NCBI GenBank assembly: GCA_947462335.1
Contig: OX381720.1
Location: 64,253,946 to 64,317,945, forward strand
Length of the DNA: 64,000 bases
Source: Harmothoe impar
Taxonomy: Eukaryota; Annelida; Polychaeta; Phyllodocida; Polynoidae
Direction: 5' to 3'
Below the pieces are notes generated by a model. That model was not told the DNA's origin. It made no database searches and was given only the letters and a program-made list of their open reading frames with translations. Position numbers and translations under genes: made by a program. Positions 20,383-45,005 of the stretch are shown piece by piece (position 1 is the stretch's first letter; each line of letters opens with the position of its first letter).

Positions 20383-20862
20383 CTAGGATTGGTTTGCCAT
20401 TTTCCTCCTGTTGGCCAAGATGGAGTTGGCAATGGAGTAGCCCCATATCTTCTTGGTGTTGGGGTCAGGGTGCAGGCCGTCCCACAGTTTTCTGTAGCGA
20501 TCGTATCTATTACTCCCCTTCAGGTGATGTATAGAGCTTTGCCACCAGGGGCCTATCACTCCAGTTTCTTCATTGATATTGACGATTACCAAATTTAAGT
20601 GACGCACCCCTTCGTTTATCACTGCCTGTTGTAAGGGATATGGGTTTAATAGGAGAGGTTGACCATTTGTTGGTTTACCATGCACCTGATTGTACCTTAT
20701 TACCCTTACTCCTACCAATTGTGCAAATGCTACAGGGGGGGCGTCTTGCGCGAAGGTGAGGTCGTCTCCAACTGACAAACCATCCCACTGCTGCATGTTT
20801 TTCAATTTCTTAACGTTTTTGTAGAGGGTGCCCTTGTGTTGCTGTTTCTGAAATGTTAACAT
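20383..20862 (-). pseudogene. LINE ORF1, C-terminal half (out of frame with the N-terminal half)
   Basis: 159 codons beginning LTFQKQQHKGTLYKNVKKLK, which matches the end of the RNA-recognition-like domain and the start of the C-terminal domain of L1-type ORF1 proteins. It ends ANSILANRRKMANQS. It continues the frame broken at the G-run near 20896-20908, so it is the second half of ORF1 rather than a separate gene. Confidence 0.75.
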
Positions 20863-20881
20863 GATGGGACGAGGGTTTTCA

Positions 20882-22040: not shown

Positions 22041-22853
22041 AATAACTACTAACCCCCTGCAGTCTATCTGTACCAGAGGGCTAATACTACTAACCCCCTG
22101 CAGTCTATCTGTACCAGAGGGCTAATACTACTAACCCCCTGCAGTCTATCTGTACCAGAAGGCTAATACTACTAACCCCCTGCAGTCCATCTCTACCAGA
22201 AGGCTAATACTACTAACCCCTGCAGTCCATCTCTACCAGAAGGCTAATACTACTAACCCCCTGCAGTCCATCTGTACCAGAAGGCTAATACTACTAACCC
22301 CTGCAGTCCATCTCTACCAGAAGGCTAATACTACTAACCCCTGCAGTCCATCTCTACCAGAAGGCTAATACTACTAACCCCTGCAGTCCATCTCTACCAG
22401 AAGGCTAATACTACTAACCCCCTGCAGTCCATCTGTATCAGAAGGCTAATACTACTAACCCCCTGCAGTCCATCTCTACCAGAAGGCTAATACTACTAAC
22501 CCCTGCAGTCCATCTCTACCAGAAGGCTAATACTACTAACCCCCTGCAGTCCATCTCTACCAGAAGGCTAATACTACTAACCCCCTGCAGTCCATCTGTA
22601 CCAGAAGGCTAATACTACTAACCCCTGCAGTCCATCTCTACCAGAAGGCTAATACTACTAACCCCCTGCAGTCCATCTCTACCAGAAGGCTAATACTACT
22701 AACCCCTGCAGTCCATCTCTACCAGAAGGCTAATACTACTAACCCCCTGCAGTCCATCTCTACCAGAAGGCTAATACTACTAACCCCCTGCAGTCCATCT
22801 CTACCAGAAGGCTAATACTACTAACCCCCTGCAGTCCATCTGTACCAGAAGGC
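22041..22853. repeat. 40/41-bp minisatellite, right part
   Basis: About 20 units continuing the array of 15128-15420. The first units are the CAGTCTATCTGTACCAGAGGG type found on the left. They then change to CAGTCCATCTCTACCAGAAGG, with 40- and 41-bp lengths from a C4/C5 difference. Continuity of unit type across the LINE shows that the LINE inserted into a pre-existing array. Confidence 0.95.
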
Positions 22854-23204
22854 TCTCATTCGGCCTGTGCCATAGGCTGCATGTACCTGTACTGGATGAC
22901 AGGGGGCGGGGGGCTCTGGGTGGATAAAACACCTTTGAAGTAGATCTCAGTGTGCTGCATGAAAAGGACTTGAAAGGTAAGCAATGTTCAGGTAAACTAT
23001 CAGCTGTATGACTAGCTAGACACAAAACTCATACAGCTTGTGTATAAGGCCATAATGTGCCCACGGTATGTATACTGTACATACACTACTTATCAAAGCC
23101 TACACTGATAACTGTATATTACCTTACACCACAGCTGGCTGTGAGAACAGAAGAAATGGCCTGACTGTATTTTACGTACATGGCTGTATGTTGATGCAGT
23201 CCAT
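22854..23204. other. Spacer with a dispersed repeat
   Basis: The stretch TTTGAAGTAGATCTCAGTGTGC ... GGTAAGCAATGTTCAGGTA (22932-22996) resembles 40513-40580, so it is part of a dispersed repeat. No gene. Confidence 0.55.
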
Positions 23205-24525
23205 TGAGCACACTCTCCTACTGTGGGTGTAAGTCAGATATGGTACATGACATGACAGGACACACTGTCCTACTGTGGGTGTAAGTCAGATATGGTACAT
23301 GACATGACACACTGTCCTACTGTGGGTGTAAGTCAGATATGGTACATGACATGACATGACATGACACACTGTCCTACTGTGGGTGTAAGTCAGATATGGT
23401 ACATGACATGACACTGTCCTACTGTGGGTGTAAGTCAGATATGGTACATGACATGACATGACACACTGTCCTACTGTGGGTGTAAGTCAGATATGGTACA
23501 TGACATGACATGACACACTGTCCTACTGTGGGTGTAAGTCAGATATGGTACATGACATGACATGACACACTGTCCTACTGTGTGTGTAAGTCAGACATGG
23601 TACATGACATGACACACTGTCCTACTGTTGGTGTAAGTCAGATATGGCACATGACATGACATGACACACTGTCCTACTGTGGGTGTAAGTCAGATATGGT
23701 ACATGACATGACATGACACACTGTCCTACTGTGGGTGTAAGTCAGATATGGTACATGACATGACATGACACACTGTCCTACTGTGGGTGTAAGTCAGATA
23801 TGGTACATGACATGACATGACACACTGTCCTACTGTGGGTGTAAGTCAGATATGGTACATGACATGACATGACACACTGTCCTACTGTGTGTGTAAGTCA
23901 GACATGGTACATGACATGACACACTGTCCTACTGTTGGTGTAAGTCAGATATGGTACATGACATGACATGACACACTGTCCTACTGTGGGTGTAAGTCAG
24001 ATATGGTACATGACATGACATGACACACTGTCCTACTGTTGGTGTAAGTCAGATATGGTACATGACATGACACACTGTCCTACTGTGGGTGTAAGTCAGA
24101 TATGGTACATGACATGACACACTGTCCTACTGTGGGTGTAAGTCAGATATGGTACATGACATGACATGACACACTCTCCTACTGTGGGTGTAAGTCAGAT
24201 ATGGTACATGACATGACACACTGTCCTACTGTGTGTGTAAGTCAGACATGGTACATGACATGACACACTGTCCTACTGTGTGTGTAAGTCAGATATGGTA
24301 CATGACATGACATGACATGACACACTGTCCTACTGTTGGTGTAAGTCAGATATGGCACATGACATGACACACTGTCCTACTGTGGGTGTAAGTCAGATAT
24401 GGTACATGACATGACATGACATGACACACTGTCCTACTGTGGGTGTAAGTCAGATATGGTACATGACATGACAGGACACATTGTCCTACTGTGGGTGTAA
24501 GTCAGATATGGCACATGGCATGACT
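23205..24525. repeat. ~52-bp minisatellite with embedded (ACATG)n
   Basis: About 25 units built from CACTGTCCTACTGTGGGTGT, AAGTCAGATATGGT and a run of ACATG pentamers. Unit length changes in 5-bp steps because the number of pentamers varies from two to four. This is a microsatellite nested in a minisatellite. Confidence 0.95.
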
Positions 24526-24766
24526 AGCTGCATGAGTGTTACCCTGCCCTTGGCTTATATAACTCATACAGCAAGTCATCTGTATCATATCTACCACTTA
24601 GTTTGCCACCATGTGCCGCAAAAGTCACATAAAAATCTGATCCTAGAAAAAAAGTGAACTATAATTTTGACATAAAGTCCAGCCTTTTTATATCCAGATC
24701 ATATTAGATATCTAAGTTGTTTTGTTGAGCACACCTCTGTAGAATGTCTATGGACTGGGTAGCCTG
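24526..24766. other. No recognisable feature
   Basis: Nothing recognised. Confidence 0.5.
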
Positions 24767-24914
24767 CCCAGTAAACAAAAAACGTTATACCACATTTTAT
24801 AACGTAATATAACGTTATATAACATTTCTCTAAGGCTCCTTACCATGGCATAACGTTATATCAAGTTTTAAAACGTTATTTTGACGTAAAATAACGTTTT
24901 TTTTGTTAGCTGGG
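24767..24914. mobile_element. ~148-bp MITE rich in AACGTTAT
   Basis: The left end CCCAGTAAACAAAAAACGTT is mirrored by AACGTTTTTTTTGTTAGCTGGG. The interior is several ATAACGTTAT palindromes. No coding capacity. Confidence 0.8.
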
Positions 24915-24984
24915 TGAGAGTGTTGATGTTGATGGCCTTGTTTGGCTGCTGTGTACCTGGATGTCCGGTCACCTTACATGTTCC

Positions 24985-26505
24985 CACCACACCTGTACAG
25001 GTGTACTACCACACCTGCTGTACAGGTGTACTACCACACCTGCTGTACAGGTGTACTACCACACCTGCTGTACAGGTGTACTACAACACCTGCTGTACAG
25101 GTGTACTACCACACCTGCTGTACAGGTGTACTACCACACCTGCTGTACAGGTGTACCACAACACCTGCTGTACAGGTGTACTCCAACACCTGCTGTACAG
25201 ATGTACTACCACACCTGCTGTACAGGTGTACTACCACACCTGCTGTACAGGTGTACTACCACACCTGCTGTACAGGTGTACTACCACACCTGCTGTACAG
25301 GTGTACTACCACACCTGCTGTACAGGTGTACTACCACACCTGCTGTACAGGTGTACCACAACACCTGCTGTACAGGTGTACTCCAACACCTGCTGTACAG
25401 ATGTACTACCACACCTGCTGTACAGGTGTAGTACAACACCTGCTGTACAGGTGTACTACAACACCTGCTGTACAGGTGTACTACCACACCTGTACAGGTG
25501 TACTACCACACCTGCTGTACAGGTGTACTACCACACCTGTACAGGTGTACTACCACACCTGTACAGGTGTACTACCACACCTGCTGTACAGGTGTACTAC
25601 CACACCTGCTGTACAGGTGTACTACCACACCTGCTGTACAGGTGTACTACCACACCTGCTGTACAGGTGTACTACCACACCTGCTGTACAGGTGTACCAC
25701 AACACCTGCTGTACAGGTGAACTACAACACCTGCTGTACAGGTGTACTACCACACCTGCTGTACAGGTGTACTACCACACCTGCTGTACAGGTGTACCAC
25801 AACACCTGCTGTACAGGTGTACTACAACACCTGCTGTACAGGTGTACTACCACACCTGCTGTACAGGTGTACCACACCTGCTGTACAGGTGTACTACCAC
25901 ACCTGCTGTACAGGTGTACTACCACACCTGCTGTACAGGTGTACTACAACACCTGTACAGGTGTACTACAACACCTGTACAGGTGTACTACCACACCTGC
26001 TGTACAGGTGTACCACACCTGCTGTACAGGTGTACTACCACACCTGCTGTACAGGTGTACTACCACACCTGCTGTACAGGTGTACCACAACACCTGCTGT
26101 ACAGGTGTACTACCACACCTGCTGTACAGGTGCACTACCACACCTGTACAGGTGTACTACAACACCTGCTGTACAGGTGTACTACAACACCTGCTGTACA
26201 GGTGTACTACCACACCTGCTGTACAGGTGAACTACAACACCTGCTGTACAGGTGTACTACCACACCTGTACAGGTGTACTACAACACCTGCTGTACAGGT
26301 GTACTACCACACCTGCTGTACAGGTGCACTACCACACCTGTACAGGTGTACTACAACACCTGCTGTACAGGTGTACTACAACACCTGCTGTACAGGTGTA
26401 CTACCACACCTGCTGTACAGGTGAACTACAACACCTGCTGTACAGGTGTACTACCACACCTGTACAGGTGTACTACCACACCTGCTGTACAGGTGAACTA
26501 CAACA
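24985..26505. repeat. 25-bp minisatellite of paired E-boxes
   Basis: About 60 units, mostly ACCTGCTGTACAGGTGTACT + ACCAC, with a shorter form lacking GCTGT in which CACCTGTACAGGTG is a perfect palindrome. Every unit contains CACCTG and CAGGTG. The 25-bp period is not a multiple of three and no frame contains a stop, which explains the giant open frames on both strands. They are not genes. Confidence 0.97.
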
Positions 26506-27600
26506 GGCCAGTATGGGGCGCTGTTTGCTGGGCTCTAATTGGATGCTCACCTTACAGGGAGGTAAAGAGAGAACTCCAAGATGGACACTACATCATTACT
26601 GCTGAAACAAACATCTTGAAGTCATCATGTTCCTGCAGTATTGCATTTTCACAAACCCAAAGCACCTCACCAATAATGTGTATCTCTCAAATAGTATGCT
26701 TTATGACAGAAACCCCCTTTTTCCACAGTGCCAAAGGGAAAAAACTAATTTGGATCAAACTCATATACTTTAGAGGCAGTGACATCCAAGTGTGTTTCAC
26801 CCTAAAAGGGCTGCTCTGTGTTCCTGTGATGAGGAATGCTGCCCTGGTGAATAGAACCAGTGATGCATTCATGTGTCCAGTGTACCAACATGTTAGGGTA
26901 ACATTAGACAAGAATACAGCTCTACAGTACAGCCATGCACCATGCAGCAGTAAAGCACCCTTAGAGGTATATATCCCAGGTATTGGGGGCCCTGGAAGAC
27001 CGTGACCACACATTCACTACATCGTGATTCCCTGCTGAGTAACAATCTTGTGGGATTGATGTACTCTTCAAGGGTTGGCAGGAATGAATGCAGCCCTGGC
27101 AGGACCCACCAGTGCTGCATTGATGCGTCATGACGACAAAGGGGACAGCACTTTAAAGTAGTATTCTGCCCCAATGCTGTTACAGCCAAGGTAGCCTGTC
27201 AGACCTACCGACATGCACCGTGACATAGCAGACATAGGAGACACAGCAGACATAGGATACACAACAACCACACGTAGCTACCACTTCCATTAATACCCCC
27301 GCAGCTTTAGCTGACTTGTTGACGGTAACAGTCTGGGCTGATAACTTGTGTAGGGACGTTTTATATGTGAGAGACAGGGAAACATGTAAAATACCAACTA
27401 CCATATTATGAGAAGCATATACAGGGCAGGAGAAATGAATCAAAGAAGGTAAGATGGTCAATTTGTTCACACGTCACTAACAGTTGTATCACTGAGCTGT
27501 GCAGCCCAATTACCATGACCTCTAACTGACCTGACGTTCACCATATGGGCGCCCTATAGTTTCCTATACTAGTGTTTACATATGAATTAACATACATATC
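26506..27600. other. No gene recognised; dispersed CAGGGCTGCAT-type repeat
   Basis: Contains GATGAGGAATGCTGCCCTGG and AATGAATGCAGCCCTGGCAGG (about 26830-27100), related to a dispersed family seen again near 40160, 50930 and 54690. A short direct repeat of GGAGACACAGCAGACATAGG words is at 27229-27260. No gene. Confidence 0.5.
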
Positions 27601-27601
27601 A

Positions 27602-28925
27602 CCCTGAGCTGCTGCCCTCACCCTGAGCTGCTGCCCTCACCCTGAGCTGCTGCCCTCAGCCTGAGCTGCTCCCCTCACCCTGAGCTGCTGCCCTCACCCT
27701 GAGCTGCTCCCCTCACCCTGAGCTGCTGCCCTCACCCTGAGCTGCTGCCCTCACCCTGAGCTGCTGCCCTCACCCTGAGCTGCTGCCCTCAGCCTGAGCT
27801 GCTGCCCTCACCCTCAGCTGCTGCCCTCACCCTGAGCTGCTCCCCTCACTCTGAGCTGCTCCCCTCTCCCTGAGCTGCTGCCCTCACCCTGAGCTGCTGC
27901 CCTCACCCTGAGCTGCTGCCCTCACCCTGAGCTGCTGCCCTCACCCTGAGCTGCTGCCCTCACCCTGAGCTGCTGCCCTCACCCTGAGCTGCTGCCCTCA
28001 CCCTGAGCTGCTGCCCTCACCCTGAGCTGCTGCCCTCAGCCTGAGCTGCTGCCCTCACCCTCAGCTGCTCCCCTCACCCTGAGCTGCTCCCCTCACTCTG
28101 AGCTGCTCCCCTCTCCCTGAGCTGCTGCCCTCACCCTGAGCTGCTGCCCTCACCCTGAGCTGCTGCCCTCACCCTGAGCTGCTGCCCTCACCCTGAGCTG
28201 CTGCCCTCACCCTGAGCTGCTGCCCTCACCCTGAGCTGCTGCCCTCACCCTGAGCTGCTCCCCTCACTCTTAGCTGCTCCCCTCACCCTGAGCTGCTCCC
28301 CTCACCCTGAACTGCTCCCCTCACCCTTAGCTGCTCCCCTCTCCCTGAGCTGCTGCCCTCTACCTTAGCTTCTCCCTCACCCTGAGCTGCTGCCCTCACC
28401 CTGAGCTGCTGCCCTCACCCTGAGCTGCTGCCCTCACCCTGAGCTGCTGCCCTCACCCTGAGCTGCTGCCCTCACCCTGAGCTGCTGCCCTCACCCTGAG
28501 CTGCTGCCCTCAGCCTGAGCTGCTCCCTCACCCTGAGCTGCTGCCCTCACTCTGAGCTGCTGCCCTCACCCTGAGCTGCTGCCCTCACCCTGAGCTGCTG
28601 CCCTCACCCTGAGCTGCTGCCCTCACCCTGAGCTGCTGCCCTCACCCTGAGCTGCTGCCCTCACGCTGAGCTGCTCCCCTCACCCTGAGCTGTTCACCTC
28701 AGCCTAAGCTGCTCCCTCACCCTGAGCTGCTCCCCTTACCCTCAGCTGCTCCCTCACCCTCAGCTGCTCCCCTCAGCCTGAGCTGCTCCGCCCACACTGA
28801 GCTGCTCCCCTTACACTGAGCTGCTCCCTTCACCCTCCCTGAGCTGCTCCCCTCACCCTGAGCTGCTCCCCCACCCTGACGTGCTCTCCTCACCCTGAGC
28901 TGCTCCCTCACACTGAGCTGCTTCC
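27602..28925. repeat. 19-bp minisatellite CTGAGCTGCTGCCCTCACC
   Basis: About 70 units of 19 bp, with TGCCC/TCCCC variants that alternate in patches, and degeneration at the right end from about 28650 on. The same CTGAGC(T/A)GCTC vocabulary occurs at 6.9-7.5 kb. Confidence 0.96.
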
Positions 28926-30016
28926 TCACCTGAATGTCCACCTTAAGGGGATGAGTGTGAGGTAAGCTGCTGTAACCTCCATGTGACAGGTGAGTAGTGG
29001 CAGCTGTGGGCACTCATGACTCCTATACATTAACCTAGACAGATCTCCAGGTGTGGCAGGGGGTAGTGTAAGCCCTGGCTACTCATTAGTCTGAGTGCTA
29101 CTTGGACACATTATCCAGGTCAATGTGAGCTGCTCACTGTGTGAACCTGAGGGGGTGAGCAGTGGTACAGAAAGGTCCCCCTCCCCCACACACATTAGGA
29201 CCTACTACAGGTGCCCTGCAATACCACAGAGTGTCAGCAACAACATTGCACCCCCATAGTGTTGATCATGCTTGCCCCGTTACAGCACTCACCCCGTGAG
29301 TAGCTCCCTGTACCTTGTGTTTACTCTGCACTTGTCTCAGATGCTGCAGGTAGTTGTTGCTGATGACGCTTCTCTCGGTTATAAGCAGAACTATTTTTGG
29401 TGTTTTTATTTGCGCTAAGCTGAATTTCAATCTGCAAACTACTATTTGGCTCATATGTGAGGTTTAAATGTTCAGAATATGGTAATTTCACTTTTCCGTA
29501 ATTCACTCAAACTCACACCCTGCTTATAGTCAATGTTATACGATAGATGTGTACTGGGGACTAGTGCAGCCTGAAATGTGTACTGACGTGTGATACATGG
29601 GCTCTACTTCCCTGAAGAAATCTTTTATACTGATTAGGAAGCTGGTAAAGAATGATGAGGAATGGTGGTAACAATGTTAGGATCCATTTAGTACTTTATT
29701 TTATATGAATTTTCCAAAAAAGGTTTCAGCCATATAGCACCTTTCATTCTCAATAGCCAATGGGCCAATTTCAGAATGATAATATATCCATTTTGATGTC
29801 AATATGCAATTGAAAACAGATATTTCCCAATGAACTATATATGGACATTATATGAATATCTTCAGAATATGTTTAGACACATGTGTATTGGAATACTGTA
29901 CCCACTCACATTGCAGAGTTAGCAGCCCTTACCATTGAAAATAGCCATTCTGCCATTTTGACTCTAGAGCCATCGTATGGAATACATAATTGAGGACTTC
30001 TGTATTGCATATAATG
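28926..30016. other. No recognisable feature
   Basis: Flank of the virus-like element. Nothing recognised apart from short chance frames. Confidence 0.5.
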
Positions 30017-30022
30017 TATAGA
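30017..30022. repeat. Left target-site duplication TATAGA
   Basis: TATAGA immediately precedes AGTAATATAG, the left end of the element. The same six bases follow the right end at 39628-39633. Polinton/Maverick integrases make 6-bp duplications (established knowledge). Confidence 0.85.
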
Positions 30023-30581
30023 AGTAATATAGTATGTATCGGAACGGGACTATAGTTAACTACTGTTTATTACTCAATCGACCTGCAGCCAATCAGAGGC
30101 CTCCATTTGGTCACGTGACCGGAAGTGACCTACTTAGGGGATTAGTGGTGACGTCACGTGACCTAGTTAGCCAATCAGAGGCCGCCATTTGGTCACGTGA
30201 CCGGAAGTGACGTCATATGACCTACTTATGGACCGGAAGTGACGTCATATGACCTACTTATGGACCGGAAGTGACGTCATATGACCTAATTTAGGATCAC
30301 GTGACCGGAAGTGACCTGATGAGTCACGTGACCGGAAGTGACGTCACATGACCTAATGGCCAACCGGAAGTGAGTGACCTCATTGAGGATCAAGTGACCG
30401 GAAGTGACCTGATTGACCACGTGATCGGAAGAAGAAGAAGAAGAAGAAGAAGTTTTTTGTTTAGGAAGTGAGGGTCTTTAGGATCACGTGACTGGAAGCG
30501 ACGTCGTCACATGAGTGACGCTTTAAGAGACTGCGCGACTTACTAGTAAAAGAAGACGTATGAAAATAAAAACACAACAAT
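30023..30581. repeat. Left terminal inverted repeat of the Polinton-like element
   Basis: 559 bp, inverted relative to 38371-39627. It contains eight CCGGAAGTG words, five TGACGTCA words and several TCACGTGA words, plus a short (GAA)n run at 30428-30452. The inner edge AAGAAGACGTATGAAAATAA...CACAACAAT matches the sequence directly after the death-domain gene's stop codon. Confidence 0.88.
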
Positions 30582-30587
30582 AATTTA

Positions 30588-30660
30588 TTTTATTTTTTTT
30601 ATTTATTTTTTTTATTCTTGATAAACACTCTATTTTTGAAAAGATGCACTCAATCAAGCA
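30588..30660 (-). promoter_or_regulatory. A/T-rich region with poly(A) signals downstream of PolB
   Basis: On the minus strand, just after the PolB stop codon at 30683, several AATAAA hexamers occur in the AT-rich stretch 30588-30625. They would serve as polyadenylation signals for the minus-strand genes. Inferred from sequence only. Confidence 0.5.
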
Positions 30661-30682
30661 ATAACACGCTTATTATTTTTTT

Positions 30683-32035
30683 TCATATCTCTAAAGGACT
30701 CGTTGTCACACCGTCAGAATGCACGCGACGCTTATAATACAAGTAGCGCACGCTGTCTTTCTCTATGGTGTAGGTGACCATCTTGTTTCGCACCACTTTG
30801 AAATTTCTATTTACAGCAATGAGAGTTTTTCGTTGGCGAAGAACATCCAAGAAGTCGTCTGGTTCCTTAGGGTTTTGTTTCTTCTGTACGCCTTTTGCAC
30901 TCCATTTTTTGGATTTTCTTTTACCGGTGTCGCTGACTCGATCGTAGCAAATGTAAGTCTTAGGGTTGAGACTTAGGATCCCGTCACCTTCCCACTCCGC
31001 TTTCATAAGCCCCGAAGTTCTCAGATCGTGAAGGTACCGTCTCTCACAACATCCGCAGGGCAGCGGACACCATTCTCGCACTCTTTCCGTTTTTGTCTTC
31101 ACGAAGAGCTCTAAGTGATTGTCGCACACCGCTGTCGGAAGCCACTTTCGTTTCTCTCTGAAGTACGTCTCTCTCAGGCGAGGTTTGACTAGGTCATCCA
31201 ACGTGTCACCGCTGAGAGCCATGTAAAGACTGTCGGTGTCCATTTGACAAAGGGCATAATCGCGCCGATCGACGAATCTATCCAAGAAGTCGTATGTGAA
31301 CTCTAACATTTTCAACTTCGCGTACTGGTATACCATGAACCCTATTTGAATAGGGAGGTTGTTCTTGACTGTTTTCGGTTGTAGTTCGACTTCAAACAGA
31401 TCGGAACTCAACTCGGACGCCTTTTTGAAGCGCCACGAATTGGCCAATAGTTCGAACTTCCGACTGTCAGTGTATCTCACTGCCGTGTGTTTTTCTTTGT
31501 TGCAGATTTTTTTACCGTACGTAGCGTTTCCCATTAACTTGTAACAGTCTGACAGAATTTTCTCGTTCTCATTCACGTCGCCACGTCTTCGCGCCGCCGT
31601 TACTTCGTCTGCGAAACCGGCAAAGGAGCGTTTAGGTAGGTATTCTACGACCAGCTGCACTTTGGTGACTATTAAACCGTGCTCTAAATACCACTTGAGA
31701 AGCGGCGTTCCCAAGAGAATATTTTTTCCGTGGTAACTCCCTATCAGACATCTCTGAGGCGTGTTCAACAGCTTTTCTTCCTGCGCAAAGTCTGACATGT
31801 GAGGTCCTATGTCCGATTTTGAAACGGTCACGTTCTTGAAAACGGGGGTCATTTCTTCGAAGTAGTCTCGTAGGTGAGGCGGCGTAGTGATGTCCACTTG
31901 AACTAAACCGAACATTTTCTCCTCTTTCACAGCGGAAAGGATGTCGCTCTCGCTCATCGCGTTTCGAGACACTTTCAAAGCGGCAACCTTCCAGCGTTGT
32001 TGGGAGGCCTTAACCCGCTCATCTCGACGCTTCAT
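30683..32035 (-). pseudogene. PolB fragment 3: C-terminal palm and thumb of protein-primed DNA polymerase
   Basis: 450 open codons holding polymerase motif B (LMGNATYGKK, near 31520-31540 on the window) and motif C (MDTDSLYMA, near 31219-31242), then a C-terminal SAKGV segment typical of protein-primed PolBs. The first codon shown (ATG at 32035) is probably internal, because the conserved protein continues upstream in another frame (32435-32019, VVWE ending) and a single-base shift near 32045-32055 separates them. The fragment itself is undamaged. Protein-primed PolB copies linear genomes from a terminal protein at the TIR ends (family knowledge). Confidence 0.9.
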
Positions 32036-32435
32036 CTCTCTCCATTCGCAACTCCCACACGACGACCAGCTTGTGACCTAGCGCTTTCAAGTAAGCGCTT
32101 ACTCTAGTCGTTCTGTCGCGTCTCTCCTCCCTCAGTGAAGCGCACTGATATCGGTGCGACGGTATGCACTCACGAGCGTGGAACCAACACCCGTGAAACT
32201 GGAAAACCGTATTAGAGGCCGCGTGAAACCCGTCCACGCGAATTCTCCGACAGCCTACAACCATCTCGCCGCCGTTCAAAGCGTGGCACAGTTTCACGTC
32301 GCGGTCGTGCTCTACGAAGCGTAACCACTCCAAAGCGCTGTGAGAGTTTCTTTGCCTAATTTCGGGCTTGAACTCGGTCTCAGGTCGTCTCACCGCGTAA
32401 TAGCCTGTGCAGTGCGCTTCGCTCATGCAGCGCAT
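32019..32435 (-). pseudogene. PolB fragment 2: palm motif A and TPR1-like region
   Basis: The annotated Met is internal. The same frame is open further upstream to about 32615 and there carries polymerase motif A (GLDANSLYMR, around 32430-32460). Downstream come FHGCWFHARE, a segment often seen between motifs A and B of Polinton polymerases, and KLVVVWE. Both ends run into frameshifts relative to fragments 1 and 3. Confidence 0.85.
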
Positions 32436-32535
32436 GTACAGAGAGTTAGCGTCTAGTCCTAGGATGTGTTGGCACGGTCTCGCTTCTTCGCTGTACTTGT
32501 GCTCCCTTATCCGCGTGGTGCCCTTCTCGTGAAAT

Positions 32536-34782
32536 CTATGGAAGATGATGGAAGGACCGCCGACTAGATTTTCTTTGATCAGAGCGTGGAGGCCGGCGTC
32601 GAACTGGGGGAACGTTGTGAACGCGTAAAGTCAAACCGGCGAGAGAAACTCTGTCTTTCAACATGTCAATGCCGCGATCTTGGAAAAATTTAGCGTGATT
32701 TTTTAGAGCTTCTATGAAAGGTTTGACGTCTTTGTTGTTGTAGTGGATCAAGTAATCTTCCATAGTTTGCATCTTCTCGTCGGACCAAACTTTCTGACAT
32801 GCGGCGTAGTCGGATTCGGACATTTTGACGCCCGTCAGTTTGCTGTCAAAAGCCGATCTCGGTGGCAGCGTTCTGTTTGCCAGTTTCCTGGTAGACGTCA
32901 TCCATTCGTAAGGAAAGTGACCTTTCTCTTCGTTCCTGGTGAAAGCTCGCAAATAGGTCGCGTAGTTGTAACCGGGTGCCAAATAGTTGACTACGTCCAA
33001 GAAAACCGTGTGCTGTGTGTAAACCGCCAAGTATTGATTGCTTCTCTTTATGACGCTGAATTCTTGGTTTCTTCGGTCTCCGGAGGCAAAGAACGAGTGA
33101 AGGCGTATTTTGATGAGGTTCAAGTCGTAACGCCCCGAGTTGAAGCCCACGACTGGAGCTTGACGGATGTATCTCAGAAGACGCTTCTTCAGTTGAACTA
33201 ACGGGTGTCTGGTCTGAGCCGCAGCGAAGCCGCCTGGAGAAGGGGTGAATGTCGCCTCCTCCAGCAGGAGAGCTTCACCTATCGCCGCATCTAACTTCGC
33301 TAACGTCGGTCGGTAAAGTTCTAGCACAGCTTCCCCGATGACTTTGGCCTTCTCGTTTATGTGATTTAAAACTCGGTCCAACAAGGGGTCGGAATCTGCG
33401 TCGGATTCTCTGACAAAGCAGACGGGCCCCTCCCACCCCGGAAAGTCGGATGCGACGCTAGCCGACAAAGGGACGTGATCCCACAGCAGGGACACGTGTT
33501 CCGTTGACGGTTCTTTGCACGGTCTGAAGAAAGCCTCGAAATCGAAGGCGATCTTGTAAGGGTAGATTCCGGAATGTCCGTCGGGGGGAAAAATGGAGAA
33601 GTCTGCTAGCGCTTCGAAAATCGTTCTCGAATTTTGGTAGATGCCAACTACGTAGCGCAACTTGACTTGTCGGCAAGAGGAAAGCTGGTTCCTGTGTCTC
33701 TTCAGCAAGAACTCGGTGGTGAACGCCGCCTTACACTTGCAACATTCGTATATGCCCGCGTACGCGTTGAAGTCCGTGACGAGAGAGACGTGCAAACCGC
33801 CTTTCGCCGTCAGGTGTAGGTTGACTTTACCTCGGGCGGCCAGAGTTCTGGAAGGCGGTCTGATCAGAGTAACGCGTCTTCTCAACTTCCGCCCCGGCAC
33901 TTGACGCGACGCGGTGTAGACCGCTATTTGTACGTCAAACAAGTTCTCTAACGCGGGTAAGTCGCGGATGTTCAGACCCGGAAAGGATTCAGGTGTGGCA
34001 GCGGGACAGAACTGACGTAACAAATCTGAAGCGCGCTTGCTGGTGTTGTATAAGTGAAAGGAAATGCAGCGGAAGATGCAGAGGTTGTCCTTGTTGGGAA
34101 AATCTAACACGCCGCTTCTCTTTCCAACTCGACCGGCCTGAGTGATCCTACCGCCTATGGGGAATTCCCCCGGTCCCATGTAAACGCAAATGTTCAAATT
34201 GGTAGGAAAAAGAACGTGCCACTTGGTGTCAGCGTCGCAAAGTTTCCGTACTTCCTCGCAAGCGACGGTGTTTTCCATCTTTGAGAGGAGCTCTTCCAAA
34301 GTTTCTGAATTAGTTATAGTAGGGAGCGGTTGTATGAGAGTTGCGTTGTTCTGGGAGGCGTGAAAGTTGCGCAGTTTGCTCTTGTCTTCTCTGTGTTGTA
34401 AGAGTAAGCCTACCGAGAAACCCACTTTGTATCTGAATCTTTGTGTCAAGTGAATGCGACGCATAGTATCTACAGCGTCACTCAACTCGCCGGTTGGTAG
34501 CCTGAAGTTTGTTACACTCACGCGAGTCCCGTGCATCCTGACGCCCGTTTGTATCGCAGGCCAATTCGCCGTGAACGTTTCCTCCCCGTTCGGTACAGCA
34601 CGTATGCGCGGAGGGATGGTCACCCCGTCCAGAGATTCGCGTCGACAGGCGATCTTTCGGCAATCGCCTTCGCCGCATAGAGGGCAAAACTTAGGTATTA
34701 CTCTACAATTTTCTACGTGTCTCTCGTGGTTGTACGGTCTTTTAAAAATTTTGAAACACTTTTCGCATACGTACTGCGTCAT
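32536..34782 (-). pseudogene. PolB fragment 1: zinc finger, N-terminal domain and 3'-5' exonuclease
   Basis: 748 codons starting MTQYVCEKCFKIFKRP, a C2H2-type finger. CPLCGEGDCRKIAC follows, and a second finger-like CCKCKAAFTTEFLLKRHRNQ lies near residue 350. LDFPNKDNLCIFRC near 220 is a motif I associate with animal Polinton PolBs. The exonuclease motifs are Exo I FDFEAFF near 412, Exo II FNSGRYDLN near 547 and Exo III YNNKDV near 680. After VSLAGLTL (about 32625) the frame turns into basic junk and stops. The expected continuation is in another frame, so a one-base shift lies near 32605-32630, next to a C5 run. The ATG at 34782 follows a region without a visible TATA box. Confidence 0.9.
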
Positions 34783-34962
34783 GTTTTTTCACTCAGTTAC
34801 CAACTACTTAGCCGTCTAACTATCTATCAATCTATCTGTCTATCTATCTATCAATCTATCTGTCTATCTATCTATCTGTCTGCTGTCTGTGTATCCGTCT
34901 GTCTGTCTCATACAGCGTACGTCAAACGATGTGTGTGTGCGCGCGTGAGCGTTGAGCGTCTC
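34783..34962. other. PolB upstream spacer with (TCTA)n microsatellite
   Basis: 180 bp between the PolB start and the PC4-like gene's stop. It holds an imperfect TCTA/TCTG tetranucleotide repeat (about 34813-34910). Any PolB promoter would be here, but no TATA box is evident, so PolB might be co-transcribed with the upstream minus-strand gene. Confidence 0.6.
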
Positions 34963-36374
34963 TCATTCCGAATCTATACCGAGATATTTGAGAATAATCT
35001 CTGTTTTGTCATCCAACTCTTTGAGCGCTCTGGCGGACAGCGTCACCCCCTGCTGTGTGGGTTTTTTGTCAGGACCTTCGTACTTGCGCACGTGGACGAG
35101 GTTCTTACCGCTGTAGTAGCTCACAGCTGCGTACACTTGGCCCTCCTCATCCAGCACTGCGAACCAGGGGGTGTGATTAGGTCTTCCTTGCGCGGCCGCT
35201 GTGTCGCGTATGCGCACCACTGCGCGGATATCGGCGATGCGTGCTATTAGCTCGCGCAGCGCGTCGGCAGTGAAGTGCACTCGCTTGCTTCTGGTCAGAG
35301 ACGCCTCTTTCACCTGGCCGTCTTTTGTGTAGCGCGGCCTCCTAGACAGTCTAGCCATGTCCTCCCAGATCTCCAGCGTCAAAGCCCCGTCTAAGCAGAA
35401 CTCTAACCTGAGAAGACGGGAGAAGGGTTTCTCTGCTTCTTCTCGTCCATCTCGTTCTTTTTCTTGTATTTTTCTCTTCTTAGTAGGCCTTGTTGTTCTG
35501 GAACTCACCTTAGAACGTTTCAGACCCGCAAGAAGAGTAACACCATCAGCGTGAGCTGAATCAGCAGCAGAACCGATAACAGGAGCAGCGTCAGCGCTGG
35601 TGGTATCCGAGACCTCGTTGTTGGAACAGAGCAGCCACACGCCGTCGGTGCTGAGTGTAGCGGTAGAAGATGAAGCGCCGCCGCCCTCGTAAGGTGGCGG
35701 TGAGGGCAGTCGCCACGGACCGGACGCGCTACCAGTGGAAGTGAGGTCGAAAGCTGGGGAAGAGGGGAGCCGAAAAAATGTACCGTCCGCCCCTTTCCCT
35801 TCGAGTTCTTCGTACGCCTCGTCGTCAGCGTCGTTCTCTGTCTCACCCTGTTGCTGCTGCTCCTCCTCCTCCTCTTCTTCTTGGTTTAGGGGCTGAGTGT
35901 CCGAATAGCTGTAACTCTCAGCGCGAGCGGTGTCGAGGGCGTCGGTCGATGTAGTGGTGGAGGAGAGGGGCTGTGCAACGTGCGGCAGGTCATCAAAATC
36001 ATCAACAGTAGTGGGGAGGTAAAAACCCGGTTGCCAGTACTGCGCTGTGCCAGGAGCGTTGTCGTCAGTAGTAGTAGCCGTAGCAGCAGGTGCAGCAGAA
36101 GCAGCAGCAGCAGCAGCAGCAGCAGACGCAACAGTAGCAGGCGCAGCAGCCTCAGCAGGTGCAGCCGTAGCAGGCGCAGCAGTAGCAGGTGCAGCAGCAG
36201 CAGCAGCAGCAGCCGCAGCCCGAGGATCACCAGCAGCAGCAGCAGCAGCAGGCGGGGCGGCAGTAGCAGCGGCAGCGCGCTTAGCAGCAACCTGTACCGT
36301 CGCGAGTGTAACAACGTCGCTAGCACGACGACTACTACCAGTAGTACTACTACCACTACTACTACTACTACTAG

Positions 36375-36405
<31 letters not shown>

Positions 36406-36579
36406 GCTGCGAGCGCTCGCTACAGCGGGAGGGTGATAAGACCAAGCGGCTGCGGCGGTAGTCTCATTTTCAGTAGCAAGAGGAGGCACTGACGCTAAAC
36501 GAGCGCTGTTCCGCGTAGTCTTCTTGTTCTTGAACTTGCTTAGATCCTTGGACGGCGCTAGGTGTTGTCTTTTGCTCAT
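34963..36579 (-). CDS. Low-complexity protein with NLS and two tandem PC4-like DNA-binding repeats
   Basis: 538 codons from the ATG at 36579, which has a strong Kozak context (CCACCATGA). A longer reading to 36603 would need a TTG start. Residues 57-80 are poly-Ser and about 85-175 Ala-rich, encoded by trinucleotide repeats. An acidic Gln/Glu stretch follows, then a basic PTKKRKI likely nuclear signal at 365-372. The C-terminus has two repeats resembling the ssDNA-binding PC4/p15 coactivator fold: 389-455 (LTLEIWED ... LTRSKRVHFTADALREL) and 470-534 (VYAAVSYYSGKNLVHVRKY ... PTQQGVTLSARALKEL). The second fits the PC4 pattern (GK-L-DIREY ... P..KGISL) well, the first less well. A likely role is single-stranded DNA binding in replication or late transcription of the element. 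The frame is intact. Confidence 0.8.
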
Positions 36580-36638
36580 GGTGGTGACTGTAGAGAGCAG
36601 CAAAAGAATGAGTGAGTGAATGGAGGTTTCCAGGCCCC

Positions 36639-36646
36639 TTATATAC
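36639..36646 (-). promoter_or_regulatory. TATA box of the PC4-like gene
   Basis: On the minus strand TATATAAG lies about 60 bp upstream of the ATG at 36579, leaving room for a short 5' UTR. Confidence 0.6.
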
Positions 36647-36661
36647 GACTTCTCGCTTCTG

Positions 36662-37023
36662 GAGCTAAGCTACTTACTGCCCCTGTTCAGCTGCGGCCGG
36701 CTGGCCGGCGGCCATTCACAAAGAGAAACAAAAGACATAAGGCATGACGTTTTCAGCTGGATCCCTTTCCCCCCTTTTGAGAGATCGACTGTCATGAGCT
36801 AAGCTACTTACCACCCTGTTCAGCAATTCAACGCGCATTAGCTGTATAAAGGATTAAGCGGTTGCTGCCGCCGACTGACCGGCGGCCATTCACAAAGAGA
36901 AACAAAAGACATAAGGTATGACGTTTTCAGCTGGATCCCTTTCCCCTCTTTTTTGAGGGATCCACTGTCATGAGCTAAGCTACTTACCACCCTAACGCGC
37001 GTTAGCTGTATAAAGGATTAACG
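36662..37023. repeat. Direct repeats in the divergent promoter region
   Basis: GAGCTAAGCTACTTAC starts at 36662, 36796 and 36972. Between them CGGCCATTCACAAAGAGAAA, GACGTTTTCAGCTGGATCCC and ACTGTCATGAGC recur, giving two near-complete ~135-175-bp units and a partial third. CTGTATAAAGGATTAA (TATAAA at 36845 and 37009) is present in the last two. A duplicated control region between divergent genes. Confidence 0.85.
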
Positions 37024-37511
37024 GTGATGAGCTTAGAGTGTGTATACAAAAAAACTACAGGAGGCGTGTGGCGTGAAGCAGGACCCCCTAAGACGAACGT
37101 GTCTGTCTGTGAGTAGAGGCGTGTGCATGTGGTGAGCGACTTAAGTGTAAGACAAAAAAAAATCACCGCCTCCTGCCGTGGTGAGTAGACCAGGCCGGCC
37201 GGCGGCGGCCGGCTAGTTCAATAGGGAGGGGTGACAGCTGACTAAGGCTGTGCATGAAAAAATCCGATTTTCACCTGACCTCTGACGTTTGTTACAATGA
37301 ATGTCAGAGGGAGGGAGACGTCCTCAGGTAGGGGGTAGGAGGTAAGGCTATGGATGAGGAAAAAACACCGTTTTCAGCTGGTCTCCACGGATAGCGATGA
37401 CATACCCCTCGTCATCTAAGCTCTTAAGGAGCGGAGCGGCTGAAAAAGCGTCATGCGGACAGGTCGCTAGACAGCTGGAGTGCTGTTGGAAATAGGATTA
37501 AACTCCCTCTG
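37024..37511. other. Element intergenic region upstream of the death-domain gene
   Basis: About 490 bp without a convincing frame. It includes a GC-rich GGCCGGCCGGCGGCGGCCGG segment (37194-37213) and two AAAAA..CCG/AC.GTTTTCA words near 37258 and 37365. Probably control DNA. Confidence 0.5.
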
Positions 37512-37518
37512 TATAAAA
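37512..37518 (+). promoter_or_regulatory. TATA box of the death-domain gene
   Basis: TATAAAA at 37512-37518, about 112 bp before the ATG at 37630. Transcription would start near 37540, and the leader contains a CCACCACC/CCGCCG run. Confidence 0.6.
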
Positions 37519-37629
37519 GCTCTGATTTCTGTTGGAAAAAAACCATATAGCCTCTGACCACAGTAACGTCTACTACCACCACCATCGCCACCACCGCCGC
37601 CGCCGCCGCCGCCGACAAGACGAGACGAG

Positions 37630-38370
37630 ATGGCTCAAGCTATTCCACTTTCAAGCTCGCCTTCACCGCCTTGTCCACCTGAAAAAAAGTTAATGCGGCT
37701 TGACGACGTGAGACACGCGAGGCAGACCGATGGGGAGAACAGAGAGGTAGGACAGCGGCGCTTAGCATATAGCGACACCTTGCTTCGTCAACTAGGTAAA
37801 GAGTTGAGCGGATCTTGGAGAGAGTTGGGTAGTAGCTTAAAAGTTACCGCCGCCCGTATGGATGCTCTAGTAGAGCGCAGTGTCAAGACACCGGAGGAGC
37901 TGTGTACGGCGATGTTCCGAGTCTGGTGGGGTGAAACCCCGCATCGTCATAGATGGGGAGAGCTCGGTTGCGTCTTCACCCGCATTAGACGCGTGGAACT
38001 GTTGGCTCAGTGGATGTCCCTTCTCCACAGACAGGGGTTGGATTTCGAAAACCCCGACTTGCGCGCGATGCATAAGCACTTGGGCACCCTCGGCAGACGT
38101 CTAGGTAGCAGGTGGAAAGAGGTGGGGGACCATTTAAAATTGTCGCCTGAGAGGTTAGATAAGATCGCTGAAGAATGCGAATACGGAGGAAGTCCCGCTG
38201 AGTGGGCCTTCCGAGTGTTGAAAATGTGGCAAGATGAAGCTGACGGTGCCGGCGGTACGCCTTTTGAACTCCTTCGAGTGTTGACTGAGGACATGGGAAA
38301 GTTTGACCTCGGCATCGCGATATTACTTGACTTTATCAAGCAAGAAACAACGAGAACGACGGACATGTGA
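37630..38370 (+). CDS. Tandem death-domain protein
   Basis: 246 codons. The ATG is in good context (GAGATGG). After a proline/serine-rich start there are two death-fold repeats. DD1 is at about 48-130 (LGKELSGSWRELGSSLKVTA ... LCTAMFRVWW) and DD2 at about 143-232 (LGSRWKEVGDHLKLSPERLD ... WAFRVLKMW ... ELLRVLTEDMGKFDLG). The W-x-E-L/V-G, L-x-(6)-I/L and W motifs match canonical death domains, DD2 better than DD1. No caspase, TIR, kinase or membrane domain is present, so it is adaptor-like or decoy-like. Death domains mediate homotypic assembly in apoptosis and Toll/NF-kB signalling (family knowledge). A mobile element carrying one may block or redirect host cell death (inference). Transcribed opposite to PolB from its own promoter; the frame is intact, and the stop abuts the TIR. 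Confidence 0.88.
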   Translation: MAQAIPLSSSPSPPCPPEKKLMRLDDVRHARQTDGENREVGQRRLAYSDTLLRQLGKELSGSWRELGSSLKVTAARMDALVERSVKTPEELCTAMFRVWWGETPHRHRWGELGCVFTRIRRVELLAQWMSLLHRQGLDFENPDLRAMHKHLGTLGRRLGSRWKEVGDHLKLSPERLDKIAEECEYGGSPAEWAFRVLKMWQDEADGAGGTPFELLRVLTEDMGKFDLGIAILLDFIKQETTRTTDM

Positions 38371-39036
38371 ATTGTTGTGTTTTATTTTCATACGTCTTCT
38401 TTATTAGTAAGTAAAACAAAATATTATAACATTTAAGACGCGTGTCCTCTTAAAGTGTCACTTCCTCCAGTCGCAGCTGATCGCCTAATCGAGGCACGTG
38501 ATAAACAAAAAAAAATGAAGAGACACGCTTCTTCCTCTCGAGAGGAAGAAGCGTGTCTCTCGATTGAAATCTTTTCTTTTCTTTTTTTCTTAAAAGAGAC
38601 AAACACCCCTTAGAGTGCCCCCCCCCACCCGCCCAATGCATCCTAAAAGCGCCCCCCTCCCCATGCATCTTAAAGGGGCCCCCCCTCCCCCTCCCCCCCT
38701 CCCCTCCCCTCCCCTCCCCTCCCCTCCCCTCCCCTCCCCTCCCCTCCCCTCCCCTCCCCCCTTATACACTCTAAAGAATGCTTCTACCTAGTTCAATAAG
38801 TCACTTCCAGTCGCTCGTAAAACAATAAAAAATGAAAAAAAAACGTATATCGTAGTGTTTTTTATTAGTTTACCGAAAAAAATAAGAGACTCGCCTCCTC
38901 CTCCTTCTCCTCCTCCTCTCCTTCTCCTCCTTCTCCTTATCCTCCTCCTCCTCCTCCTCCAAAAAAAAAAAAAATCACATTTTAAAGCGCGTGACCCCTT
39001 AAAGACGCTCATCTCTTCATTAAGTCGCGTGACGTC

Positions 39037-39067
<31 letters not shown>

Positions 39068-39627
39068 CTTCTTCTTCTTCTTCTTCTTCTTCTTCTTCTT
39101 CTTCTTCTTCTTCTTCTTCTTCTTCTTCTTCTTCTCCTTCTTCTTCTTCTTCTTCTTCTTCTTCTTCTTCTTCTTCTTCTTCTTCTTCTTCTTCTTCTTC
39201 TTCTTCTTCTTCTTCTTCTTCCGGTCACGTGATCAATCAGGTCACTTCCGGTCACGTGATCCTCAATGAGGTCACTCACTTCCGGTTGGCCATTAGGTCA
39301 TGTGACGTCACTTCCGGTCACGTGACTCATCAGGTCACTTCCGGTCACGTGATCCTAAATTAGGTCATATGACGTCACTTCCGGTCCCCTAAGTAGGTCA
39401 TATGACGTCACTTCCGGTCCATAAGTAGGTCATATGACGTCACTTCCGGTCACGTGACCAAATGGCGGCCTCTGATTGGCTAACTACGTCACGTGACGTC
39501 ACCACTAATCCCCTAAGTAGGTCACTTCCGGTCACGTGACCAAATGGAGGCCTCTGATTGGCTGCAGGTCGATTGAGTAATAAACAGTAGTTAACCATAG
39601 TCCCGTTCCGATACATACTATACTACT
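38371..39627. repeat. Right terminal inverted repeat, expanded
   Basis: 1,257 bp, inverted relative to 30023-30581 at both its inner edge (38371-38420) and its outer part (39217-39627). The extra ~700 bp is a 42-bp palindrome, C-rich and CCCCT runs (38611-38760), CCT runs (38896-38960), a (CTT)n run (39040-39220) and repeated TTAAAG(A/C)GCG(T)G segments. About nine CTTCCGG words with CACGTGA and TGACGTCA mirror the left repeat. Long Arg or Leu frames across the CTT run are artefacts. Confidence 0.88.
38519..38560. repeat. Perfect 42-bp palindrome
   Basis: The arm AGAGACACGCTTCTTCCTCT is followed by the centre CG and its exact complement, with CTCGAG at the midpoint. No counterpart is seen in the left TIR. 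It could form a cruciform or a strong RNA hairpin about 150 nt after the death-domain stop codon. Confidence 0.9.
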
Positions 39628-39633
39628 TATAGA
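39628..39633. repeat. Right target-site duplication TATAGA
   Basis: Directly follows the right end of the element (...TACTACT) and repeats 30017-30022. Confidence 0.85.
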
Positions 39634-43778: not shown

Positions 43779-45005
43779 CTTAGCAGCAACTTGGCACGCA
43801 GGGTCCTGCTATAGCAGCGTCTACTTAGCAGCAACTTGGCAGGCAGGGTCCTGCTATACCAGCGTCTACTTAGCAGCAACTTGGCAGGCAGGGTCCTGCT
43901 ATGTTAGTGTCTACTTAGCAGCAACTTGGCACGCAGGGTCCTGCTATAGCAGCGTCTACTTGGCAGCAACTTGGCAGGCAGGGTCCTGCTATATCTATGT
44001 CTGCATAGCAGCAACTTGGCAGCCAGGGTCCTGCTATAGCAGTGTCTGCTTAGCAGCAACTTGGCAGGCAGGGTCCTGCTATACCAGCGTCTACTTAGCA
44101 GCAACTTGGCAGGCAGGGTCCTGCTATGTTAGTGTCTACTTAGCAGCAACTTGGCAGGCAGGGTCCTGCTATACCAGCGTCTACTTGGCAGGCAGGGTCC
44201 TGCTATACCAGTGTCTACTTAGCAGCAACTTGGCAGGCAGGGTCCTGCTATACCAGCGTCTACTTGGCAGGCAGGGTCCTGCTATAGCAGTGTCTACTTA
44301 GCAGCAACTTGGCAGGCAGGGTCCTGCTATACCAGTGTCTACTTAGCAGCAACTTGGCAGGCAGGGTCCTGCTATAGCAGTGTCTACTTAGCAGCAACTT
44401 GGCAGGCAGGGTCCTGCTATACCAGCGTCTACTTAGCAGCAACTTGGCAGGCAGGGTCCTGCTATATCAGCGTCTACTTAGCAGCAACTTGGCAGGCAGG
44501 GTCCTGCTATACCAGTGTCTACTTAGCAGCAACTTGGCAGGCAGGGTCCTGCTATATCAGCGTCTACTTAGCAGCAACTTGGCAGGCAGGGTCCTGCTAT
44601 ACCAGTGTCTACTTAGCAGCAACTTGGCAGGCAGGGTCCTGCTATATCAGCGTCTACTTAGCAGCAACTTGGCAGGCAGGGTCCTGCTATACCAGCGTCT
44701 ACTTAGCAGCAACTTGGCAGGCAGGGTCCTGCTATACCAGCGTCTACTTAGCAGCAACTTGGCAGGCAGGGTCCTGCTATACCAGCGTCTACTTAGCAGC
44801 AACTTGGCAGGCAGGGTCCTGCTATATCAGCGTCTACTTAGCAGCAACTTGGCAGGCAGGGTCCTGCTATACCAGCGTCTACTTAGCAGCAACTTGGCAG
44901 GCAGGGTCCTGCTATACCAGCGTCTACTTAGCAGCAACTTGGCAGGCAGGGTCCTGCTATATCTGTGTCTACCTAGCAGCAACTTGGCAGGCAGGGTCCT
45001 GCTAT
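43779..45005. repeat. 45-bp minisatellite
   Basis: About 28 units of CTACTTAGCAGCAACTTGGC, AGGCAGGGTCCTGCTATA and CCAGCGT, with two units shortened by deletion of TAGCAGCAACT (near 44184 and 44263). Because 45 is a multiple of three, frames such as SNLAGRVLLYQRLLS stay open, but there is no start context or flanking exon to suggest a protein. Confidence 0.96.

What the first reader, a model, noticed from the sequence alone, without database searches (positions are those of the whole stretch)
30023..39627. Minimal 9.6-kb Polinton/adintovirus-like element with no integrase or capsid genes
Long inverted repeats, AG...CT ends and a protein-primed PolB place it with Polintons/adintoviruses, yet only two other genes are present: a PC4-like ssDNA-binding protein and a tandem death-domain protein. 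Every other stretch inside is promoter, simple repeat or TIR. A PolB + ssDNA-binding + death-domain gene set looks like a distinct replicon that copies itself but neither packages nor integrates on its own. I know of no described element with this exact content.
Basis: partly seen in the sequence, partly recalled or inferred. Interest (0 to 1): 0.9.

Follow-up and report, generated by a model that had tools for sequence, protein, structure and literature searches.

The report
Polinton-like element with split genome
The 9.6-kb element is one of about 2,500 integrated copies that carry a viral-type DNA polymerase, while the integrase and probable capsid genes sit on a second, separate element with the same ends, which suggests a Polinton-type virus or transposon with a divided genome.

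Summary
Window 30023-39627 is an AG...CT element with ~430-bp inverted repeats and a perfect 6-bp target duplication. It encodes PolB, a PC4-like and a death-domain protein; ten other ORFs of 80 aa or more match no Pfam family above cut-off. PolB is frame-broken twice in this copy; its frame is uninterrupted, as far as fetched, in 8 of 12 other copies.

It is no deletion one-off. The terminal 30-mer occurs 7465+7464 times in the 1.51-Gb host genome, 0 for the reversed control: about 4.7% of the genome if all ends pair.

Elements with these ends fall into five classes whose inverted repeats agree only over ~82-98 bp. S1 (this one) has PolB. S2 (10.4 kb) has rve integrase, adenovirus-type protease, packaging ATPase and a probable capsid in the published Maverick order, but no PolB. 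S3 and S4 look mostly non-coding. S5 carries a PolB fragment. Of 41 end-paired elements, 10 hold PolB only, 11 the capsid gene only, 0 both.

Best reading: a Polinton/Maverick-type virus or transposon with replication and integration/capsid functions on separate elements, plus satellites. Virions, transcription and host identity are untested; a rare complete element is not excluded.

The parts
30017..30022 (.). left copy of the 6-bp target-site duplication (TATAGA)
30023..30452 (+). left terminal inverted repeat
30023..30120 (+). terminal core shared with S2 and S3 elements (95-97 of 98 identical between one example each of S1, S2, S3; 79-81 of 82 between examples of S1-S4)
30121..30430 (+). 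array of CCGGAAGT, TGACGTCA, CACGTG and one GCCAATCAG site, particular to this class (the first CACGTG, CCGGAAGT and GCCAATCAG lie in or at the edge of the core)
   Evidence: Left TIR: 8 CCGGAAGT, 5 TGACGTCA, 6 CACGTG, 2 GCCAATCAG. Counted on both strands: 8, 10, 12, 2 against means of 0.012, 0.04, 0.382 and 0 in 1000 dinucleotide shuffles. Transcription-factor names are recalled
30683..32035 (-). PolB C-terminal piece (palm; motifs KLMGNATYGK and MDTDSLY)
   Evidence: motif roles recalled
32019..32618 (-). PolB middle piece, another frame (motif DANSLY)
   Evidence: no Pfam hit
32536..34782 (-). PolB N-terminal piece (zinc-finger-like, OTU-like region, exonuclease motifs; the last ~30 residues run past the frame break)
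   Evidence: domain names other than the weak zf-C2H2 matches are recalled
34963..36603 (-). PC4-like protein, long Ser/Ala-rich N-terminus, PC4-like C-terminus
   Evidence: C-terminal dN/dS 0.27 in 13 copies
36690..37021 (.). region between the PC4-like and death-domain genes with tandem cassettes ending AACGCGYRTTAGCTGTATAAAGGATTAA; a similar 20-mer lies in S2 (2 mismatches) and S4 (4 mismatches)
   Evidence: promoter role is inferred
37630..38370 (+). tandem death-domain protein
   Evidence: dN/dS 0.43 in 10 copies
38679..39221 (.). simple-repeat tracts, running into the inner edge of the right repeat
39197..39627 (-). right terminal inverted repeat
39628..39633 (.). right copy of the 6-bp target-site duplication

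Best explanation
The window element is one part (S1, replication part) of a Polinton/Maverick-type genetic element whose genome is divided between at least two separately integrated DNAs. S1 supplies PolB (by family, protein-primed) and a PC4-like putative ssDNA-binding protein, plus a death-domain protein that may act on host death or immune signalling. S2 supplies integrase, protease, packaging ATPase and the probable capsid proteins. Both (and the S3 and S4 elements, mostly without recognisable genes) carry nearly the same ~80-98-bp terminus, which I infer is the origin for protein-primed replication, the integrase end and possibly the packaging signal. Further in, each class has its own array of transcription-factor-type sites. 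Shown: shared termini, 6-bp duplications (S1, S2, S3), gene partition in the sample, thousands of copies, dN/dS below 1 in most coding regions. Inferred: trans-complementation, protein priming, packaging, the role of each protein.
For: Shared core with a sharp edge: 95-97 of 98 identical between examples of S1, S2, S3 and 79-81 of 82 between examples of S1-S4, but only 3-13 of 32 identical just inside (one example per class). Gene partition: 41 pairs = 10 PolB only, 11 MCP only, 0 both, 20 neither; along C1 up to 104.8 Mb, 99 listed PolB and 77 listed MCP hits give 5 neighbours under 20 kb, none with overlapping predicted spans. S2 genes: rve 3e-13; Peptidase_C5 and Adeno_IVa2 just above cut-off; Chromo below it; in the order int-minor capsid-PW-MCP-protease reported for vertebrate Mavericks (PMC8097293 section 7); no frame of 100 aa or more in four S2 copies matched PolB, the PC4-like or the death-domain protein. 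Same integration signature: perfect 6-bp duplications in 17 of 18 elements checked (window; 9 of 9; 7 of 8), all different. Copy numbers of the same order: PolB 36-mer 2503, MCP 36-mer 1611, ends 14929; classes 10:11:10:8 for S1:S2:S3:S4 in the sample (chi-square p 0.92). dN/dS below 1 in both parts: 0.26 PolN, 0.41 PolC, 0.43 DD, 0.31 MCP, 0.10 ATPase. Recent activity: the best 40 of 1647 MCP candidates, the only ones scored, are ~100% identical and full length.
Against: No virion, transcript or excised DNA was examined. 0 of 41 leaves room for a complete element at up to about 7% of copies (rule of three), and the overlay used only the listed hits (PolB 0-1 mismatch, MCP 0 mismatches). PolB and MCP counts are unequal (2503 against 1611). 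S3 and S4 show that elements with few or no genes are mobilised, so S1 could be a passenger of some other helper. S5 holds a broken PolB fragment at 89% DNA identity, so recombination between classes happens. Integrase dN/dS is 0.79 and the values for S2 rest on 4 copies; the PC4-like middle part has 1.39; no significance test was made. MCP is named from gene order, not from a profile match. The no-overlap of PolB and MCP among 41 pairs alone has chance probability 0.027.
Confidence: 0.68

Rival explanations
1. S1 (and S2 to S5) are non-autonomous derivatives of a complete monopartite Polinton that is rare, unassembled or exogenous and supplies everything in trans.
For: S3 and S4 have no or few recognisable genes and still multiply; S5 is a recombinant with a PolB fragment; 41 pairs cannot exclude a rare full element. 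PMC11071296 (passages) reports other genomes with adenovirus-class virion proteins that lack PolB and integrase.
Against: No element with both PolB and MCP among 41 pairs, or by predicted span among 99 PolB and 77 MCP hits. S1 and S2 keep complementary, not overlapping, genes with dN/dS below 1 for all but the PC4 middle part, and have different inner inverted repeats, which simple internal deletion of one parent would not give.
Confidence: 0.2
2. A two-component transposon pair that amplifies only inside the germ line; the capsid genes are retained but no particles move between cells.
For: Thousands of integrated copies, many near-identical; the terminal 25-mer has no exact match in 2.9 million viral contigs.
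Against: Capsid-side genes have low dN/dS (MCP 0.31, ATPase 0.10, four copies), which suggests particles matter. Viral contig libraries probably cover such hosts poorly.
Confidence: 0.25
3. The window element is a single internally deleted Polinton.
For: This copy has broken PolB frames.
Against: 9 of 9 spanned copies share the gene set or a further deletion of it, with their own 6-bp duplications; the PolB 36-mer has 2503 copies.
Confidence: 0.01

Closest known systems
Vertebrate Mavericks/Polintons (PMC8097293; passages and section 7 seen)
   Same: 6-bp duplications; (AGT)2//(ACT)2 end motif (as in the S2, S3, S4 examples and the 9 S1 copies; the window's left end differs by one base); TIR about 400 bp; rve integrase, protease, ATPase, probable capsid genes in the same order
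   Different: Theirs are single elements of 12.7-24.6 kb (mean 16.9) with PolB and integrase together and mostly low copy number (135 in one fish, and hundreds of defective copies in two species, in the passages seen). Here two gene modules lie on separate elements and ends number 14929.
Adintoviruses (PMC11071296 and PMC8363768, passages seen)
   Same: PolB with N-terminal OTU-like region (here by eye), rve integrase with C-terminal chromodomain (here below cut-off), maturation protease and packaging ATPase
   Different: The three Drosophila-associated ones in the passages are single contigs of 13.3-14.6 kb; none split there.
Bidnaviruses and Vesanto virus (PMC8363768, PMC11071296, passages seen)
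   Same: Protein-primed PolB, two or up to twelve segments
   Different: Parvovirus-like capsid and NS1; no rve integrase or adenovirus-type packaging ATPase mentioned in the passages seen.
Virophage/transpoviron-type satellites (listings only)
   Same: Small elements depending on another element's genes
   Different: Here dependence appears mutual between S1 and S2.

Membership tests
Polinton/Maverick | 6-bp target-site duplication and AG...CT inverted ends | tested here: met
   17 of 18 elements perfect, 1 with one mismatch
Polinton/Maverick | family B DNA polymerase | tested here: met
   On S1 only: phrog_1907 DNA polymerase E 5e-5 plus recalled motifs; against it, no Pfam polymerase hit
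Polinton/Maverick | protein priming | not testable with these tools
   inferred from family and ends
Polinton/Maverick | rve integrase in the same element as PolB | tested here: not met
   Integrase on S2; the S1 copies aligned to the window copy have no room for it
Polinton/Maverick | DJR major capsid, protease and packaging ATPase | tested here: inconclusive
   On S2: protease and ATPase just above Pfam cut-off; MCP by gene order only
Adintovirus | PolB with OTU-like domain and integrase with chromodomain | tested here: inconclusive
   Chromo E 8e-4, below cut-off; OTU-like region read by eye, no profile hit
Segmented virus | segments with common termini and complementary genes | tested here: met
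Segmented virus | all segments packaged and needed for infection | not testable with these tools
   needs particle DNA

The most novel reading that the evidence does not exclude
A multipartite, integrating dsDNA virus of the Polinton lineage: replication module and integration/capsid module on separate DNAs with a common ~80-98-bp terminus, accompanied by satellite segments of like size with few or no genes (most pairs 8.7-10.5 kb, suggesting a packaging limit), with class-specific enhancer-like arrays in the inverted repeats, filling about 5% of its host's genome.
Probability: 0.5. Interest if true: 0.93.

Novelty: new variant of a known kind. Interest (0 to 1): 0.86.

Why it matters
Polintons and Mavericks are described as one-piece elements in the passages seen. 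A divided genome in this lineage would be a route from one-piece to multipartite DNA viruses (as in bidnaviruses) caught inside a host genome with thousands of copies that can be dated, and would explain capsid-less PolB elements elsewhere as halves of a pair. The tests are direct: count both halves in related genomes and in particles. The listings (PMC open library; some capped, such as 25 of 1336, 20 of 46 and 12 of 29) showed no title or abstract start describing a segmented Polinton; only passages or sections of five papers were opened.

Tried and rejected
Deletion-derivative reading: rejected by 9 of 9 spanned copies. Chance repeat: rejected (reversed 30-mer 0 and 0). PolB phylogeny: not possible; protein database off; no relatives by tblastn for PolB pieces (viral contigs; phages) or for MCP, ATPase and integrase (viral contigs; close relatives only); a motif-B pattern gave five contigs with no match to the window proteins better than E 0.017. 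Structure models of the PC4-like C-terminus (mean pLDDT 50) and the death-domain protein (43) were too poor to use, so no fold search was run. Host identity: the COX1 search did not complete; that the host is an animal is inferred from the death domain, LINE-like frames and recalled transcription-factor sites. Genome counts for S3, S4 and S5: the S4 pattern did not complete; S3 and S5 were not asked. Rfam and tRNA scans of the window: nothing. The PF05768 match in PolB and PF01757 match are below cut-off and taken as chance.
Full report
The element. Window 30023-39627 has inverted repeats of about 430 bases (30023-30452 and 39197-39627) and is flanked by a perfect 6-bp duplication TATAGA. Three proteins are recognisable. 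PolB lies on the minus strand in three pieces and frames. A PC4-like protein has PF02229 at E 1.1e-4, below the curated cut-off; a tandem death-domain protein has PF00531 at E 5.5e-8. Ten other ORFs of 80 aa or more gave no Pfam family above cut-off (two single-residue repeat ORFs not sent). PolB rests on phrog_1907 at E 5e-5 and on recalled motifs; Pfam gave no polymerase match. The left repeat holds 8 CCGGAAGT, 5 TGACGTCA, 6 CACGTG and 2 GCCAATCAG, far above 1000 dinucleotide shuffles; the factors that bind such sites are named from recall only.

It is a large family with many young copies. In the host genome (1.51 Gb, unnamed) the left repeat gave 40 full or nearly full matches at 99% or more, the window's own included (275 candidates, 40 scored). 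The terminal 30-mer with up to two mismatches occurs 7465 times forward and 7464 reverse; the reversed control 0 and 0. At about 9.6 kb each, and if all ends pair, that is roughly 4.7% of the genome. Ten further S1 copies were read in separate pieces. Nine had both ends in reach, all nine with perfect and different 6-bp duplications and lengths of 7000 to 9505; the tenth (L014/L041) had its right end out of reach and an unaligned stretch that I did not analyse. Two of the nine lost the death-domain gene by deletion and a third lost its 3' end. None of the nine is longer than the window copy. PolB is one uninterrupted frame, as far as the fetched piece reaches, in 8 of 12 copies (10, 2); its C-terminal part is open in 11 of 19 left-end loci, 10 of which belong to copies already among the 12. 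Copies with uninterrupted stretches exist and none is singled out; the rest are broken by stops or frame changes.

The missing genes are on a partner. The first 100 ends listed (C1, 0-5.02 Mb) form 41 pairs under 30 kb and 18 unpaired ends. Lengths are 8.7-9.9 kb (28), 10.34-10.54 kb (11), 13.2 and 15.9 kb. The 10.4-kb class (S2; four copies read in pieces, ORFs listed for one) carries an rve integrase (3e-13) with a chromodomain-like C-terminus (8e-4, below cut-off), an adenovirus-type protease and an adenovirus IVa2-like ATPase (both just above cut-off), plus 372-, 141-, 435-, 396-, 110- and 238-aa frames without Pfam family. The order integrase, 372 aa, 141 aa, 435 aa, protease equals int, minor capsid, PW, MCP, protease in vertebrate Mavericks (PMC8097293 section 7). 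On that ground alone I call the 435-aa protein MCP; profile and PDB searches gave nothing. No S2 frame of 100 aa or more matched PolB, the PC4-like or the death-domain protein (blastp 1e-6).

Five classes, one terminus. All 41 pairs were classed by repeat or gene: S1 10, S2 11, S3 10, S4 8, S5 2. Notes on that count: one search printed S1 11, S2 8, S3 10, S4 9 for the 38 it saw. L075 counts as S1 by its interior though its repeat is lost, against its weak best repeat match to S4; three S2 were not probed and rest on the MCP hit alone; L089 and L096, nearest to S1 with weak scores, are set apart as S5. In one example per class the outermost 82 bases agree at 79-81 of 82 in all pairs of S1-S4, and 98 bases at 95-97 of 98 among S1-S3. 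Beyond that, identity falls to 3-13 of 32, and each class has its own motif array: ETS/CRE-like in S1, GTTGCCATGGTAAC-like in S2, ATTTGCAT and CACGCCC in S3, GGCGGGAA with some ETS-like sites in S4, CCATATAAGG with ETS/CRE-like sites in S5 (by eye); factor names recalled. In one search, 4 S2, 2 S3 and 2 S1 elements carry 6-bp duplications, 7 of 8 perfect and one S1 with a mismatch; S4 and S5 were not checked. S4 (one copy read) has no open frame beyond shuffles; S3 (two copies, both with inserted repeats) has a 436-466-aa Ala-rich frame and little else of its own; spliced genes are not excluded. S5, read over 2001 bases of one copy, has a broken PolB fragment at 89% DNA identity and a 283-aa frame of unknown kind.

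PolB and MCP do not share an element in the sample. Overlaying the listed PolB 36-mer hits (up to 1 mismatch) and MCP 36-mer hits (0 mismatches; more diverged hits are counted but not listed): 10 pairs PolB only, 11 MCP only, 0 both, 20 neither (chance of no overlap 0.027). On C1 up to 104.8 Mb, 99 PolB and 77 MCP hits give five neighbours under 20 kb, all with non-overlapping predicted spans. Genome totals with up to 3 mismatches: PolB 1232+1271, MCP 801+810, controls 0.

Selection and age. Pooled pairwise dN/dS: PolN 0.26 (13 copies), PolC 0.41 (21), PC4 C-terminus 0.27 (13), PC4 middle 1.39 (12), death domain 0.43 (10); S2 with four copies each: MCP 0.31, ATPase 0.10, protease 0.50, 141-aa 0.37, 372-aa 0.60, integrase 0.79, 396-aa 0.43, 110-aa 0.13, 238-aa 0.65 (the window or L046/L047 copy included in each count). 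Mean dS is 0.01-0.04 in both parts. Pooled values mix change along replicating lineages with neutral change after insertion, and no significance test was made. The best 40 of 1647 MCP candidates, the only ones scored, are about 100% identical over 1308 bases.

Mechanism, most likely. PolB and the PC4-like protein of S1 copy any DNA with the shared terminus by protein priming; the S2 integrase inserts it with 6-bp duplications; S2 capsid, protease and ATPase package DNAs of about 9-10.5 kb; the death-domain protein interferes with host death signalling. The first two steps follow from gene content and termini; packaging rests on the similar sizes and on low dN/dS in capsid-side genes; the last is a guess from the domain. 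S3 and S4 would be satellites riding on the same signals.

Limits. Literature: the PMC listings and passages cited show Mavericks and adintoviruses as single molecules and segmentation in bidna-like viruses; PMC11071296 also mentions genomes with adenovirus-class virion proteins but no recognisable PolB or integrase. Passages of PMC11071308 and PMC12567637 were seen too; subscription papers and the original adintovirus paper were not readable.

Noticed in passing
window 16071-18989 (-) and 20383-21571 (-): Non-LTR retrotransposon-like 972-aa frame (endonuclease/reverse-transcriptase look, by eye) and two upstream frames, apparently a separate repeat.
   Followed up: no
window 22045-28930 and 43779-45005: Long minisatellite arrays with units of 41, 52, 25, 19 and 45 bp; the window is rich in tandem repeats.
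   Followed up: no
L058 and L059: The 15.9-kb S3 copy contains tandem units of about 1.13 kb, each with the same 113-aa frame, a stretch not matched in the other S3 copy.
   Followed up: no
L055 3-2888 (+): The 13.2-kb S3 copy holds a 961-aa non-LTR retrotransposon-like frame, presumably a nested insertion.
   Followed up: partly
L097 34-885 (-): S5 carries an open 283-aa frame with no Pfam family above cut-off beside a broken PolB fragment.
   Followed up: partly
window 36690-37021; L047 3646-3849; L085 779: A promoter-like cassette ending in CTGTATAAAGGATTA is shared by S1 and S2 and, weaker, S4, so the parts may be co-expressed.
   Followed up: partly
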